Shown: in pieces, positions 29,213 to 31,857 of the stretch | Layout of the letters: every line of letters begins with the position of its first letter | Position numbering within the stretch: the stretch's first letter is position 1 | Assembly: GCA_026393755.1 (NCBI GenBank) | Contig: JAPKZO010000016.1 | Span: 1-34,698 of the forward strand | Origin: Acidobacteriota bacterium | GTDB lineage: Bacteria; Acidobacteriota; Vicinamibacteria; Vicinamibacterales; JAKQTR01 | Length of the DNA: 34,698 bases | Direction of reading: 5' to 3' | Made by a program: the position numbers and the translations under genes | The notes under the pieces: generated by a model | Told to the model about the DNA's origin: nothing | What the model saw: only the letters and a program-made list of their open reading frames with translations | Database searches by the model: none

Positions 29213-29268
29213 GGCGGATCGGGGCGAGCGCCGCAGAAGGCGCATTCCTGTAAGTGCGTGTTTCCAAG

Positions 29269-29355
29269 TGCCGGGGGTGGGAATCGAACCCACACGACCC
29301 TTGTGGAGTCCCGGGATTTTAAGTCCCGTGCGTCTGCCAGTTTCGCCACCCCGGC
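29269..29355 (-). tRNA. tRNA-Leu (anticodon UAA)
   Basis: 87-base class II tRNA. Acceptor strand GCCGGGG pairs with CCCCGGC, followed by discriminator A at 29269. The anticodon stem CGGGA/TCCCG encloses the loop CTTAAAA (anticodon at 29321-29319). There is a long variable arm, and the T-arm is GTGGG-TTCGATT-CCCAC. CCA is not encoded (AAG follows A73 in the plus-strand reading). A minus-strand GATAAT at 29368-29363 could be the -10, placing the start almost at the mature 5' end. Its 3' half is repeated at 26190 and 24636, so this gene is the integration target of the region to its left. Confidence 0.95.
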
Positions 29356-29637: not shown

Positions 29638-29721
29638 GATGCTACAAAAGGCATCATAAATGACATAATAGATGCTGTATAACGCATCAGTAGATTGACC
29701 TTAGATGCTTTCTAGCGCATC
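29638..29721 (+). promoter_or_regulatory. Three phased 18-bp dyad operators, GATGC-N8-GCATC, every 33 bp
   Basis: Copies at 29638-29655, 29671-29688 and 29704-29721, each a perfect 5-bp inverted repeat with an 8-base centre. Their centres are exactly 33 bp apart, about three helical turns, so all three face the same side of the DNA. All copies extend to GATGCT at the left, and GCATCA follows at the right. The third lies inside the promoter of the mobile mystery protein A gene. The best candidate ligand is the HTH protein encoded immediately downstream, binding cooperatively as dimers to repress itself. Confidence 0.8.
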
Positions 29722-29723
29722 AT
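29695..29723 (+). promoter_or_regulatory. Promoter of the mobile mystery A/B operon, predicting a leaderless mRNA
   Basis: TTGACC (29695-29700, 5 of 6 to the -35 consensus), a 17-base spacer, then CATCAT (29718-29723, 4 of 6 to the -10). A start 7 bases after the -10 is base 29730, the A of the ATG. There is no Shine-Dalgarno before that ATG, consistent with leaderless translation. The third operator dyad fills the spacer and overlaps the -10. Confidence 0.5.
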
Positions 29724-29729
29724 ACATTC

Positions 29730-30242
29730 ATGAGAGCCAACAAACAGAGCCTCATCAGCCAGCGAAAGCTCATCGAGAAGAAGATTCGCCCGTGGATCGC
29801 CATCCGAACGGACCAGATGCCGCGCTCCGGCTGGATCAAAGCGGTTCGGGGCGCGCTCGGCATGAATACGCGGCAACTCGCCGAACGTGTCGGTGTCGAC
29901 CAATCCAACATCACGCGGATTGAGGAGCGGGAACCTTCAGGCAAGGTCACTCTAGAACGACTTGCGAAGACCGCCCGCGCGATGAACTGCAAGTTGATCT
30001 ACGCCATCGTTCCAAACGATCGATTCGCCGATCTTGAGGCGATCATCGACGAGCGGGCAACGGACCTCGCAGAGCAACTCGTGCACACGGCTGAACACTC
30101 GATGCGGCTGGAGAAACAGGGAGCGAGCAATGACGACTTGGCCAAGGAGGTTGACAGCCTCGCACACCAACTGAAATCGAAGATGGATTCTCGAATCTGG
30201 GGGAAGAGGACGGGAAATAGCTGGTCGGAGGCGCACAAGTGA
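29730..30242 (+). CDS. Mobile mystery protein A (HTH regulator, probable antitoxin partner)
   Basis: 170 aa. An N-terminal basic helix (MRANKQSLISQRKLIEKKIRPW) leads to the family hallmark PRSGWIKAVRGALGMNTRQLAERVGVDQSNITRIEERE, a HTH_3/XRE DNA-binding domain at about 32-70. VTLERLAKTARAMNCKLIYAIVPNDRF follows, then a helical tail with EQLVHTAEHSMRLEKQGASNDDLA. These blocks define the mobile mystery protein A family, which is always found with protein B. Its stop overlaps the GTG of protein B by 4 bp (GTGA), so translation is coupled. Three dyad operators lie directly upstream, suggesting autoregulation. The low-GC promoter region contrasts with the surrounding DNA, a sign of transfer. Confidence 0.88.
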   Translation: MRANKQSLISQRKLIEKKIRPWIAIRTDQMPRSGWIKAVRGALGMNTRQLAERVGVDQSNITRIEEREPSGKVTLERLAKTARAMNCKLIYAIVPNDRFADLEAIIDERATDLAEQLVHTAEHSMRLEKQGASNDDLAKEVDSLAHQLKSKMDSRIWGKRTGNSWSEAHK

Positions 30243-30841
30243 GCCCGTTCCCAATTGACTATCCCCCTGGCGCCACGCCTCTGGATCCGAACGAGGCGGA
30301 GGGCCTCATTTCCGACTACATCACGACACAGGGCGAACTGAATACGCTCGAGCGCGAGAACATCACCGAAGCTACGAACTGGGCTGAAAGCAGACAGCCC
30401 TCGGACATCCTCACGGCGACGTTTACTCTCAACGTTCACAAACGGATGTTGAATCGTGTGTGGAAGTGGGCCGGAAAGCCGAGAAGGTCGAACAAGAACA
30501 TTGGAGTGTTCAAGGAGAACATCTCGACCGAGCTAGCCAACTTGTTGGCCGACACGAAATATTGGATTGAGCATGGAACCTACGGTTGGGATGAGATTGG
30601 CGCGCGATTCCATCATCGACTGGTTTCGATTCACGTATTTGTGAACGGCAATGGTCGGCATGCTCGCATCATGACGAACATTCTCCTCAGTTCAAATAGG
30701 CAAGAACCCTGCTCTTGGGGGATGAGAACCCACACCGGAGCACTTGAGGTGGGGGGTGCCTTGAGAGACGAATACATTTCAGCTCTCAAAAGGGCCGACC
30801 AAGGTGACTACGATGCGTTGATACGATTCGTGCGGAGCTGA
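30239..30841 (+). CDS. Mobile mystery protein B (Fic-domain protein)
   Basis: 200 aa from GTG 30239, overlapping the A gene by GTGA. The N-terminal YPPGATPLDPNEAEGLI and TTQGELN blocks are typical of the family. The Fic catalytic loop is HVFVNGNGRHAR (residues 132-143). It matches H-x-F-x-(D/N)-G-N-G-R-x-x-R with valine where proline is usual, and the essential histidine, phosphate-binding GNGR and final arginine are all intact. An AMPylation or related nucleotidyl-transfer activity is therefore expected. An N-terminal TLEREN (36-41) fits the inhibitory S/T-x-x-x-E-G/N pattern of class II Fic proteins and might self-inhibit. With protein A it behaves like a toxin-antitoxin-type cassette, but that role is inferred. 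Confidence 0.88.
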   Translation: MSPFPIDYPPGATPLDPNEAEGLISDYITTQGELNTLERENITEATNWAESRQPSDILTATFTLNVHKRMLNRVWKWAGKPRRSNKNIGVFKENISTELANLLADTKYWIEHGTYGWDEIGARFHHRLVSIHVFVNGNGRHARIMTNILLSSNRQEPCSWGMRTHTGALEVGGALRDEYISALKRADQGDYDALIRFVRS

Positions 30842-30918
30842 CGCTCACTGACCCCCGCTGCGGGCCATTTACGGGCCACGACGTAGCCGGATCGTCTGTC
30901 AGGTTGGAAGATATCACG

Positions 30919-31857
30919 CTACGACGCGTTGGTCGGCGGGATGGGTTCGCGGCGCTCGCGCCGGATTCTCGCGAAGGCGGCCGTAAACTCCACGCCATAG
31001 AGCAGGACGACGGCGGAGATGTAAATCCACAACAGGAACCAGATGACCGTCGCAATTGAACCGTGGATGCTGGAGCTCGCCCACCGCCGCAGGTACCAGG
31101 AGAAGCCTTCGAAGGCGCCGCGCCACGCCAGGGCCGTGACGACGGCGCCGGGCCACACATCGCGAAGGCGTACCTTCGTGTTGGGGACGAAGTAGAACAC
31201 CAGGCCCACAACGACGACAAACAGCACGAAGGCGCCGACGGGCCCTTCCCATCCCCGCACGGTGGCGAGCCAGGGGAACTGCGGAAGCAGCGTCGACCAG
31301 GCGGCCCCGGTCATCTTCGAAATGCTCAACAGGAACAGCGCGGCAAACAACAAGAGGACTGCCGCGGCCATCATCAGAAACGAGAAGAAACGGTGTCCCC
31401 AAAAACTCCGGGGCCGCTCAACGCTCCAGGCGTGGTTGACGGCCGAAGTGATGGCCCCGAATACGCCCATTGACGCCCAGACCAGCGCGAGCAGCGAGCC
31501 GACGCCCAACCGGGCCCCAGTCTGGCTGAACAGGTCCACCTGGCTGGCGATGAAGTCGGGCTGCGCGGGAAAGTACCCCAGCACGATCTCGAGCACGTGG
31601 TCGCGAACCTGTTGACCGGCCTCGAAGGAGCCGAGCACGGAGAACGCCAGCAGCAGAAACGGAAGAAACGAGAGGAGCGCGTAATAAGCGATCGACGCGG
31701 CGTGCGTCAGATCGTCGCTGCTGTAGGCCACCTCGATCAGGCCGCGCCAGGCGGCGCGCCCCATCAGCGACGCGCCGTCGACCGCCTGCTCGCCGAGTCG
31801 GCGGACACGCCGTGCGACCGGATCGACACGGAGGGTGCTGGAGTGATCGTGTGCCAA
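30919..31857 (-). CDS. YihY/virulence factor BrkB family membrane protein
   Basis: 312-aa inner-membrane protein with about six transmembrane helices. Family blocks: LTHAASIAYYALLSFLPFLLLAFSVLG (first helix region), GVGSLLALVWASMGVFGAITSAVNHAWSVERPRSFW, GLVFYFVPNTKVRLRDVWPGAVVTALAWRGAFEGFSWYL and STIHGS-like SSIHGSIATVIWFLLWIYISAVVLLYGVEFTAAF. The physiological role of the family is unsettled. Homology does not decide the start. TTG 31857 lies 9 bp after the upstream gene's stop and gives an N-terminal arginine-rich cytoplasmic tail; ATG 31764 is the alternative. It is co-transcribed with the YtxH-like gene. Confidence 0.9.
   Translation of the reverse strand: MAHDHSSTLRVDPVARRVRRLGEQAVDGASLMGRAAWRGLIEVAYSSDDLTHAASIAYYALLSFLPFLLLAFSVLGSFEAGQQVRDHVLEIVLGYFPAQPDFIASQVDLFSQTGARLGVGSLLALVWASMGVFGAITSAVNHAWSVERPRSFWGHRFFSFLMMAAAVLLLFAALFLLSISKMTGAAWSTLLPQFPWLATVRGWEGPVGAFVLFVVVVGLVFYFVPNTKVRLRDVWPGAVVTALAWRGAFEGFSWYLRRWASSSIHGSIATVIWFLLWIYISAVVLLYGVEFTAAFARIRRERREPIPPTNAS

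What the first reader, a model, noticed from the sequence alone, without database searches (positions are those of the whole stretch)
29638..29730. Three identical dyads in exact 33-bp phase control a leaderless mobile-mystery A/B operon
Seen directly: GATGC-N8-GCATC occurs three times with a 33-bp period, in an AT-rich island just before the mystery A gene. The third copy fills the spacer of TTGACC-N17-CATCAT, whose predicted start is the A of the ATG, and there is no Shine-Dalgarno. Known: mystery A is an HTH protein, always paired with the Fic-domain mystery B. Inference: A binds the three same-face sites cooperatively and shuts off a leaderless A/B mRNA, the conditional control expected of a toxin-antitoxin-like cassette. 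I know of no description of this operator for the family.
Basis: partly seen in the sequence, partly recalled or inferred. Interest (0 to 1): 0.8.

Follow-up and report, generated by a model that had tools for sequence, protein, structure and literature searches.

The report
Phased operator array of mystery A/B
A pair of mobile bacterial genes of unknown role carries three to four evenly spaced palindromes just before its first gene, and their letters change in step with that gene's DNA-reading helix, so the pair very probably switches itself off like a toxin-antitoxin module.

Summary
In detail: GATGC-N8-GCATC at 29638, 29671 and 29704, exact 33-bp period, directly before mobile mystery protein A. 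It is a family-wide feature. Upstream of 86 non-redundant A genes, self-similarity peaks at lag 33 (z 22.4), then 66; 84 of 91 loci pass a test for dyads at 31-34-bp steps, 155 of 201 steps exactly 33. Of 41 other HTH genes, 4 pass. Dyad letters differ between loci and track A residues 58 and 59, at the start of the recognition helix, first and second of 142 columns. Promoter-like spacers sit in register with a dyad (43 of 75; shuffles mean 18, maximum 25). So A very probably reads these sites; autorepression is the likely use. A leaderless start is plausible here but not general (12 of 75). New inference: a helix of A ends in [S/T]-M-x-L-E-x-Q (E in 94 of 94), resembling the inhibitory helix of class I Fic antitoxins, though the match is incomplete. 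Closest known: hipBA operators (TATCC-N8-GGATA), which step 28/39/28. Nothing was tested at the bench.

The parts
29638..29655 (.). dyad 1, GATGC-N8-GCATC (operator, inferred)
29671..29688 (.). dyad 2, GATGC-N8-GCATC (operator, inferred)
29704..29721 (.). dyad 3, GATGC-N8-GCATC, inside the promoter spacer and overlapping the -10 element
29695..29700 (+). predicted -35 element TTGACC
   Evidence: same register to a dyad as in 22 other loci of 75
29718..29723 (+). predicted -10 element CATCAT; predicted start at about 29730, the A of the ATG
   Evidence: start site not measured
29730..30242 (+). mobile mystery protein A, Cro/CI-type HTH protein, 170 aa
   Evidence: TIGR02612 138.3 bits, cut-off 122.6; HTH_3; AlphaFold2 pLDDT 91.7
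29901..29930 (+). codons of residues 58-67, predicted recognition helix
   Evidence: helix H58-67; residues 58 and 59 rank first and second for co-variation with dyad letters, 57, 60 and 56 in the top six
30099..30116 (+). codons of A residues 124-129 (S-M-R-L-E-K), candidate Fic-inhibition motif at the C-terminal end of helix 102-126
30239..30841 (+). mobile mystery protein B, Fic-domain protein, 200 aa, GTG start overlapping the stop of A
   Evidence: TIGR02613 224.3 bits, cut-off 124.4
30632..30667 (+). Fic signature HVFVNGNGRHAR of B (asparagine where the canonical motif has D/E)

Best explanation
The three dyads are the operators of protein A. A dimers (434/HipB-type HTH) read the arms in two successive major grooves; three to four dimers line up at 33-bp steps on nearly one face of the DNA, cover the A/B promoter (one dyad lies inside the -35/-10 spacer) and repress it. 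A is also the antitoxin: its C-terminal part carries a helix ending in [S/T]xxxE that would dock into the Fic active site of B, as VbhA and EcFicA do in their toxins. When A is lost, promoter and toxin are released together. Shown by computation: the array, its conservation, its register with promoter-like sites, its co-variation with the recognition helix. Inferred: dimer binding, cooperativity, repression, inhibition of B, toxicity.
For: Lag 33 z 22.4 and lag 66 z 8.6 in 86 loci. 84 of 91 loci pass the dyad-chain test; steps 33:155, 32:36, 34:7, 31:3. Spacing scan: median score 18.1 at 33 against 5.7-6.7 at eight other spacings. Control HTH genes: lag-33 z 0.6, 4 of 41 pass. Columns 58, 59, 36, 57, 60, 56 rank highest of 142 for association with dyad letters after regression on whole-protein distance; 58 and 59 exceed the 95% point of 200 permutation maxima. 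RPQ at 57-59 goes with ATCAG in 8 of 8 loci, VQS or AQS with ATCA in 7 of 7. Promoter register: 43 of 75 within 4 bp of a dyad centre, 60 shuffles mean 18.0, maximum 25. Ten plasmid loci tested afterwards: of nine with a Fic gene next door seven pass with 3-4 copies, one more shows dyads by eye after moving a start codon, one fails; one HTH gene without B fails. A: E128 94/94, Q130 94/94, S/T124 89/94, at the end of helix 102-126; EcFicA SRRLEG lies at the C-terminal end of its first helix (PMC5033356, passages). B fold, on relative L031: VbhT first, Z 18.1 over 175 residues, with EcFicT, Fic-1 (AntF complex) and a Bartonella Bep domain tied within 1. Mesorhizobium loti mystery protein B is in a table of the 50 genes with the highest M-values under heat shock (PMC3989490, one passage), as release of a repressed operon predicts.
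Against: No binding, transcript or toxicity data. The residue after the motif glutamate is G/N in only 11 of 94 A proteins, and B has N instead of D/E at the metal position in 85 of 87, so class I Fic inhibition is not a textbook match. By sequence the best solved relatives of window B are FICD proteins (class II, 1.2e-5) and NmFic (class III, 2.3e-4), not class I toxins, and Foldseek ranks FICD first by E-value, though over both domains with rmsd near 26. The permutation test for co-variation does not model the tree, and column 58 (1.10) stays below the largest permutation maximum (1.19). 7 of 91 loci do not pass the chain test. AlphaFold of the A-B read-through gave pTM 0.62 and no coordinates, so docking was not seen.
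Confidence: 0.7

Rival explanations
1. A is a controller-type regulator that first activates and then represses, like C proteins of restriction-modification systems (recalled behaviour): the upstream dyads recruit polymerase and the last one blocks it.
For: A's HTH is structurally as close to C.AhdI (Z 8.4) and C.Esp1396I (8.2) as to HigA2 (8.4) and HipB (8.0). In 30 of 43 loci with a promoter-like spacer on a dyad it is the penultimate one, so other dyads lie up- and downstream of it.
Against: In the window and 22 other loci of 75 the promoter spacer itself holds a dyad in one register, which suits blocking. A is followed by a Fic gene and carries a Fic-inhibition-like motif, the make-up of an antitoxin.
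Confidence: 0.12
2. The dyads are sites of a host regulator, nucleoid protein or mobile-element recombinase and have nothing to do with A.
For: The cassette is mobile and sits near a tRNA gene.
Against: Dyad letters differ from locus to locus and follow A's recognition helix. No GATGC dyad lies downstream of B in the window and no repeat was found in 30842-31100. The array follows A across unrelated hosts.
Confidence: 0.04
3. The array is an operator, but the transcript is not leaderless: it starts further up, for example from the TATAAC at 29678-29683, giving a leader near 40 nt.
For: The commonest layout among relatives is a promoter-like site on the penultimate dyad (30 of 43) with a leader of 25-29 nt (19 of 43).
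Against: No Shine-Dalgarno in the window; the -35 that would serve TATAAC is poor by inspection, while TTGACC-N17-CATCAT is in the register seen in 23 of 75 loci.
Confidence: 0.3
4. A/B is an autoregulated pair but not a toxin-antitoxin: B modifies a target for another purpose, such as defence, and A is only its repressor.
For: B matches the PADLOC candidate family PDC-S04 (3.2e-19); TIGR02613 is listed as Fic/Doc defence cargo of Tn7-like elements (PMC8649781, one passage); B's metal residue is changed to N.
Against: Invariant E128 and [S/T] at a helix end in A, with such a motif in only 5 of 76 B proteins, is the class I layout; A-before-B overlap is typical of type II modules (recalled).
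Confidence: 0.25

Closest known systems
Escherichia coli hipBA operator array (HipB, type II toxin-antitoxin)
   Same: Cro/CI-type HTH antitoxin; several 5-N8-5 dyads (TATCC-N8-GGATA, four sites, cooperative; PMC3920265, passage); a TTGACT directly abuts one dyad, where here TTGACC stands 3 bp before one. HipB-operator complexes are among the Foldseek neighbours of A, weakly (E 0.06).
   Different: HipB sites step 28, 39, 28 bp, not 33; the toxin is a kinase; A is longer and carries a Fic-type motif.
FicTA / VbhTA class I Fic toxin-antitoxin modules
   Same: Protein with an [S/T]xxxE helix encoded directly upstream of a Fic protein; B's fold (on L031) has VbhT first, with EcFicT and Fic-1 tied.
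   Different: The antitoxin here is an HTH repressor; 'DNA-binding' has 0 hits in three FicTA papers searched for it. G/N after the glutamate is mostly missing and B has N for D/E. By sequence B's best solved relatives are class II and III Fic proteins.
mobile mystery protein A/B (TIGR02612/TIGR02613)
   Same: The window's genes are members over the cut-off.
   Different: No operator or function found in the library: the phrase is in 4 papers, where the passages are gene lists or context; the model numbers are in two more, one seen as a table passage, one only in the listing (PMC3936711).
Fic-Xre pairs listed in a 2009 survey of type 2 toxin-antitoxins
   Same: A Fic/Doc gene next to an Xre-type HTH gene (22 occurrences in its table; PMC2701414, passage).
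   Different: No operator, motif or subfamily described in the passages read.

Membership tests
mobile mystery protein A (TIGR02612) | model score over the curated cut-off | tested here: met
   138.3 bits, cut-off 122.6
mobile mystery protein B (TIGR02613) | model score over the curated cut-off | tested here: met
   224.3 bits, cut-off 124.4
class I Fic toxin-antitoxin (FicTA/VbhTA) | Fic fold in the second gene | tested here: met
   Pfam Fic 4.5e-9 for the window; VbhT Z 18.1, rmsd 2.7, 175 aligned, for B of relative L031
class I Fic toxin-antitoxin (FicTA/VbhTA) | signature HxFx(D/E)GNGRxxR | tested here: not met
   N at the D/E position in 85 of 87 B proteins, the window included; last R in 87 of 87
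class I Fic toxin-antitoxin (FicTA/VbhTA) | (S/T)xxxE(G/N) in a separate protein encoded just upstream | tested here: inconclusive
   S/T 89 of 94, E 94 of 94, G/N 11 of 94; window SMRLEK
class I Fic toxin-antitoxin (FicTA/VbhTA) | no inhibitory motif within the Fic protein itself | tested here: inconclusive
   (S/T)xxxE(G/N) in 5 of 76 B proteins, at scattered places, which looks like chance; but the window is one of the five (TLEREN)
class I Fic toxin-antitoxin (FicTA/VbhTA) | antitoxin glutamate contacts the second arginine of the Fic motif | not testable with these tools
   model coordinates are not returned
HipBA-type toxin-antitoxin | Cro/CI-type HTH antitoxin with tandem 5-N8-5 operators over its promoter | tested here: met
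   sequence layout only; binding not tested
HipBA-type toxin-antitoxin | HipA kinase partner | tested here: not met
   partner is a Fic protein
type II toxin-antitoxin | toxin arrests growth and antitoxin neutralises it | not testable with these tools
   needs a bench test

The most novel reading that the evidence does not exclude
The 33-bp lattice is set by the A-B complex: B bridges neighbouring A dimers, so a Fic toxin is stored on DNA in a regular nucleoprotein array that serves at once as repressor, toxin depot and ratio sensor. The phasing, kept while the letters of the dyads change, is the conserved element. B's altered metal residue (D/E to N) would make it a Fic enzyme with a reaction other than plain AMP transfer.
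Probability: 0.25. Interest if true: 0.82.

Novelty: new variant of a known kind. Interest (0 to 1): 0.63.

Why it matters
A gene pair that NCBI still names 'mobile mystery' gets a testable function: an HTH repressor-antitoxin and a Fic toxin under a phased operator array. The array keeps its step of about 33 bp in hosts of several phyla (by record title) while its letters co-vary with a few residues of A, so the family is a natural data set for decoding how a Cro/CI-type helix chooses its DNA, and its spacing puts a measurable constraint on the structure of the repressor complex.

Tried and rejected
Exact GATGC dyad as a family operator: rejected, 1 of 75 scored loci, the window itself. 33 as a codon artefact (a multiple of 3): control stretches inside A, far upstream and downstream do show lag-33 z of 10.1, 5.3 and 4.9, but with other multiples of 3 higher in each; upstream of A lag 33 is at z 22.4 and the next multiples of 3 are 66 (8.6) and 12 (6.2). 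General property of HTH antitoxins: rejected, 4 of 41 controls pass. A general leaderless promoter: rejected. Known family for the C-terminal part of A: four segments gave only weak Pfam matches below every cut-off. Docking of A on B: the AlphaFold read-through had good local confidence, but the aligned ranges of its structure matches span mainly residues 184-367, that is B, so nothing follows about docking. A in phage records: no match. Literature: the searches showed no operator described for this pair; most subscription papers are not held.

Limits on counts: the 80 loci are the best 80 of 313 relatives, chosen by protein similarity, not by upstream sequence. The 96 loci include the window itself, and five of the 13 (L009-L013) score below the TIGR02612 cut-off. 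The chain test prefers 33 by its penalties, so the less biased figures are those. In one search lag 33 is the sole or joint best lag in 51 of 86 loci and lag 32 is second. Five of 96 loci were dropped as redundant; five more, whose starts were set by hand, entered only; three of the 86 (L012, L037, L045) had provisional starts. Control starts were set by rule, not by homology.

Full report
Observation. The genome holds 21 copies of the exact dyad in 4.43 Mb and no other two are 33 bp apart. A and B belong to TIGR02612 and TIGR02613. The pair looks acquired: B was found in 4 of 60 genomes of the window's kin, its own included, and in none of the one other same-genus and three same-family genomes among them; the nearest A proteins (54% identity) come from a Bdellovibrionales and a deltaproteobacterial MAG.

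The family test. I collected 96 A loci: 13 from genomes of the window's phylum, the window included and five below the family cut-off, 80 from named genomes (best 80 of 313 relatives) and 3 from viral contigs. They were chosen by protein, not by upstream DNA. In the 165 bases around the start of A in 86 non-redundant loci, identity at lag 33 is 0.371 against 0.272 in dinucleotide shuffles (z 22.4); lag 66 is second (z 8.6), lag 14 third (7.8). A scan by locus that looks for two matching arms without asking for symmetry puts 72 of 86 loci at 9 or more of 12 arm matches at lag 33, against a mean of 9.3 loci at other lags; lag 32 is next with 28.

A chain search for dyads at 31-34-bp steps, scored against 40 shuffles of each sequence, is passed by 84 of 91 loci (at most one shuffle as good); 80 beat all 40. 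Chains have 4 copies in 38 loci, 3 in 41 and 2 in 5; steps are 33 (155), 32 (36), 34 (7), 31 (3); 75 of the 84 have an even centre. With the central spacing moved to eight other values the median score falls from 18.1 to 5.7-6.7, with shuffles at 4.0-5.1. In those 75 loci arms are symmetric at positions 4-7 from the centre (0.75-0.87), half so at 8 (0.52), and the inner 8 bases are not (0.41-0.55): arms of 4-5 bp around N8 (positions 4-8 were used in the search, the inner ones were not). As controls, 41 other HTH genes of the same phylum (30 couple_hipB matches and 11 weak TIGR02612 matches) give lag-33 z 0.6, and 4 of 41 pass.

A set looked at afterwards: ten plasmid loci picked from the listings, at most 0.50 identical upstream to the first set. 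Nine have B or a Fic gene next door. Seven of the nine pass (99-100 of 100 shuffles beaten, 3-4 copies). Xanthobacter L151 gave only a GC-rich two-copy chain with its annotated TTG start; with the ATG at 892 three dyads are visible by eye. Megaera L154 fails (82 of 100). The tenth, a Comamonas HTH gene without B, fails (3 of 100) as it should.

Who reads the sites. Dyad letters differ: ATAAC/ATAAT types, ATCAG, ATCAC, ATAGG, TTGCA, ACAGG and, in the window alone, GATGC. For 75 loci I ranked 142 alignment columns of A by how well sharing a residue predicts sharing dyad letters, after regression on overall protein distance. The best are window positions 58, 59, 36, 57, 60, 56; the first three keep their order at three distance thresholds. 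AlphaFold puts the recognition helix at 58-67, and by recalled alignment to 434 repressor 58 and 59 stand where its Q28 and Q29 touch DNA. RPQ at 57-59 goes with ATCAG in 8 of 8 loci, and VQS or AQS with ATCA in 7 of 7. Columns 58 and 59 exceed the 95% point of the permutation maxima, but neither exceeds the largest one, and permutation ignores the tree.

Promoter. The best sigma-70-like spacer is centred within 4 bp of a dyad centre in 43 of 75 loci (60 shuffles: mean 18.0, maximum 25), and in one register, the window's, in 23 (mean 4.1, maximum 10). Of the 43, 30 use the penultimate dyad and 7 the last; of the 23, 15 and 7. A leader of 25-29 nt is predicted in 19 of the 43, with the last dyad then near the Shine-Dalgarno or start codon (last centre at -10 to -12 in 35 of 84 passing loci, at -5 or -6 in 11). 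In the window, L002, L012 and L111 the promoter is on the last dyad and the predicted start is at the ATG. So operator and promoter are interlocked in both layouts, and leaderless initiation is a minority form.

What A and B do. A is an HTH domain with helices before and after it; no Foldseek match reaches E 0.001, and HigA, HipB, DdrO and C proteins score Z 8.0-8.6 over the HTH part. Helix 102-126 ends in the motif S-M-R-L-E; across 94 distinct A proteins the glutamate and the glutamine two later are invariant and S/T is present in 89. This resembles the (S/T)xxxE(G/N) helix of Fic antitoxins, in which the glutamate pairs with the last arginine of the Fic motif (PMC3667792 and PMC5033356, passages); EcFicA's SRRLEG also sits at a helix end. 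The G/N is mostly lacking (11 of 94). B's fold, judged on the relative L031, has VbhT first, with EcFicT, Fic-1 and a Bep domain tied (Z 17.2-18.1). By sequence, however, window B's best solved relatives are FICD and NmFic, of classes II and III. B keeps the last arginine (87 of 87) but has N for the metal-binding D/E (85 of 87). An inhibitory-helix antitoxin that is itself the operator-binding repressor fits these facts best, without being proved by them. A published array experiment lists mystery protein B of Mesorhizobium loti among the 50 genes with the highest M-values under heat shock (M 4.02; PMC3989490, one passage), in line with a repressed operon that stress opens; I did not check the dyads at that locus.

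Comparison. The dyad layout and the interlock with the promoter are those of hipBA, where four TATCC-N8-GGATA sites start at -134, -106, -67 and -39 from hipB, steps 28, 39, 28. The nearly constant 33-bp step, kept by a whole family while the letters change, and the Fic partner set this apart. At 10.5 bp per turn 33 bp is 3.14 turns, so three sites fan out by about 50 degrees each; a slightly unwound or bent complex at 11 bp per turn would put them exactly in line (arithmetic and inference). I rate it a new variant of a known kind: an autoregulated toxin-antitoxin-like operon. Function, cooperativity and toxicity are untested.

Noticed in passing
29268-29355: tRNA-Leu(TAA) on the minus strand lies about 280 bp before dyad 1, with the cassette on its 5' side; B is absent from the one other same-genus and three same-family genomes examined.
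   Followed up: partly
30632-30667: B's Fic motif has N where AMP transferases have D/E, in 85 of 87 family members; this may mean a different reaction or metal use.
   Followed up: partly
30239-30841: B matches the PADLOC phage-defence candidate PDC-S04 (3.2e-19), more strongly than the entry SoFic (1.7e-8).
   Followed up: no
L043 1944-3307; L049 1968-3454: Two A genes lack a B match: in L043 the next gene is a different, longer Fic protein (Fic_N plus Fic), in L049 an HTH gene and a HipA gene follow. Both A genes keep the dyad array.
   Followed up: partly
L010-L013 upstream of A: A divergent branch of A (below the family cut-off) has other dyad letters, three of four with an odd centre (for example AGGGGAATTTATAGTTCCCCT), but still 33-bp steps.
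   Followed up: no
L151 844-892: The annotated TTG start of mystery A in Xanthobacter pXAUT01 runs through dyad-like DNA; the ATG at 892 fits the family better.
   Followed up: partly
L115: In E. coli K-12 the hipB operators step 28, 39, 28 bp and TTGACT directly abuts one of them.
   Followed up: yes
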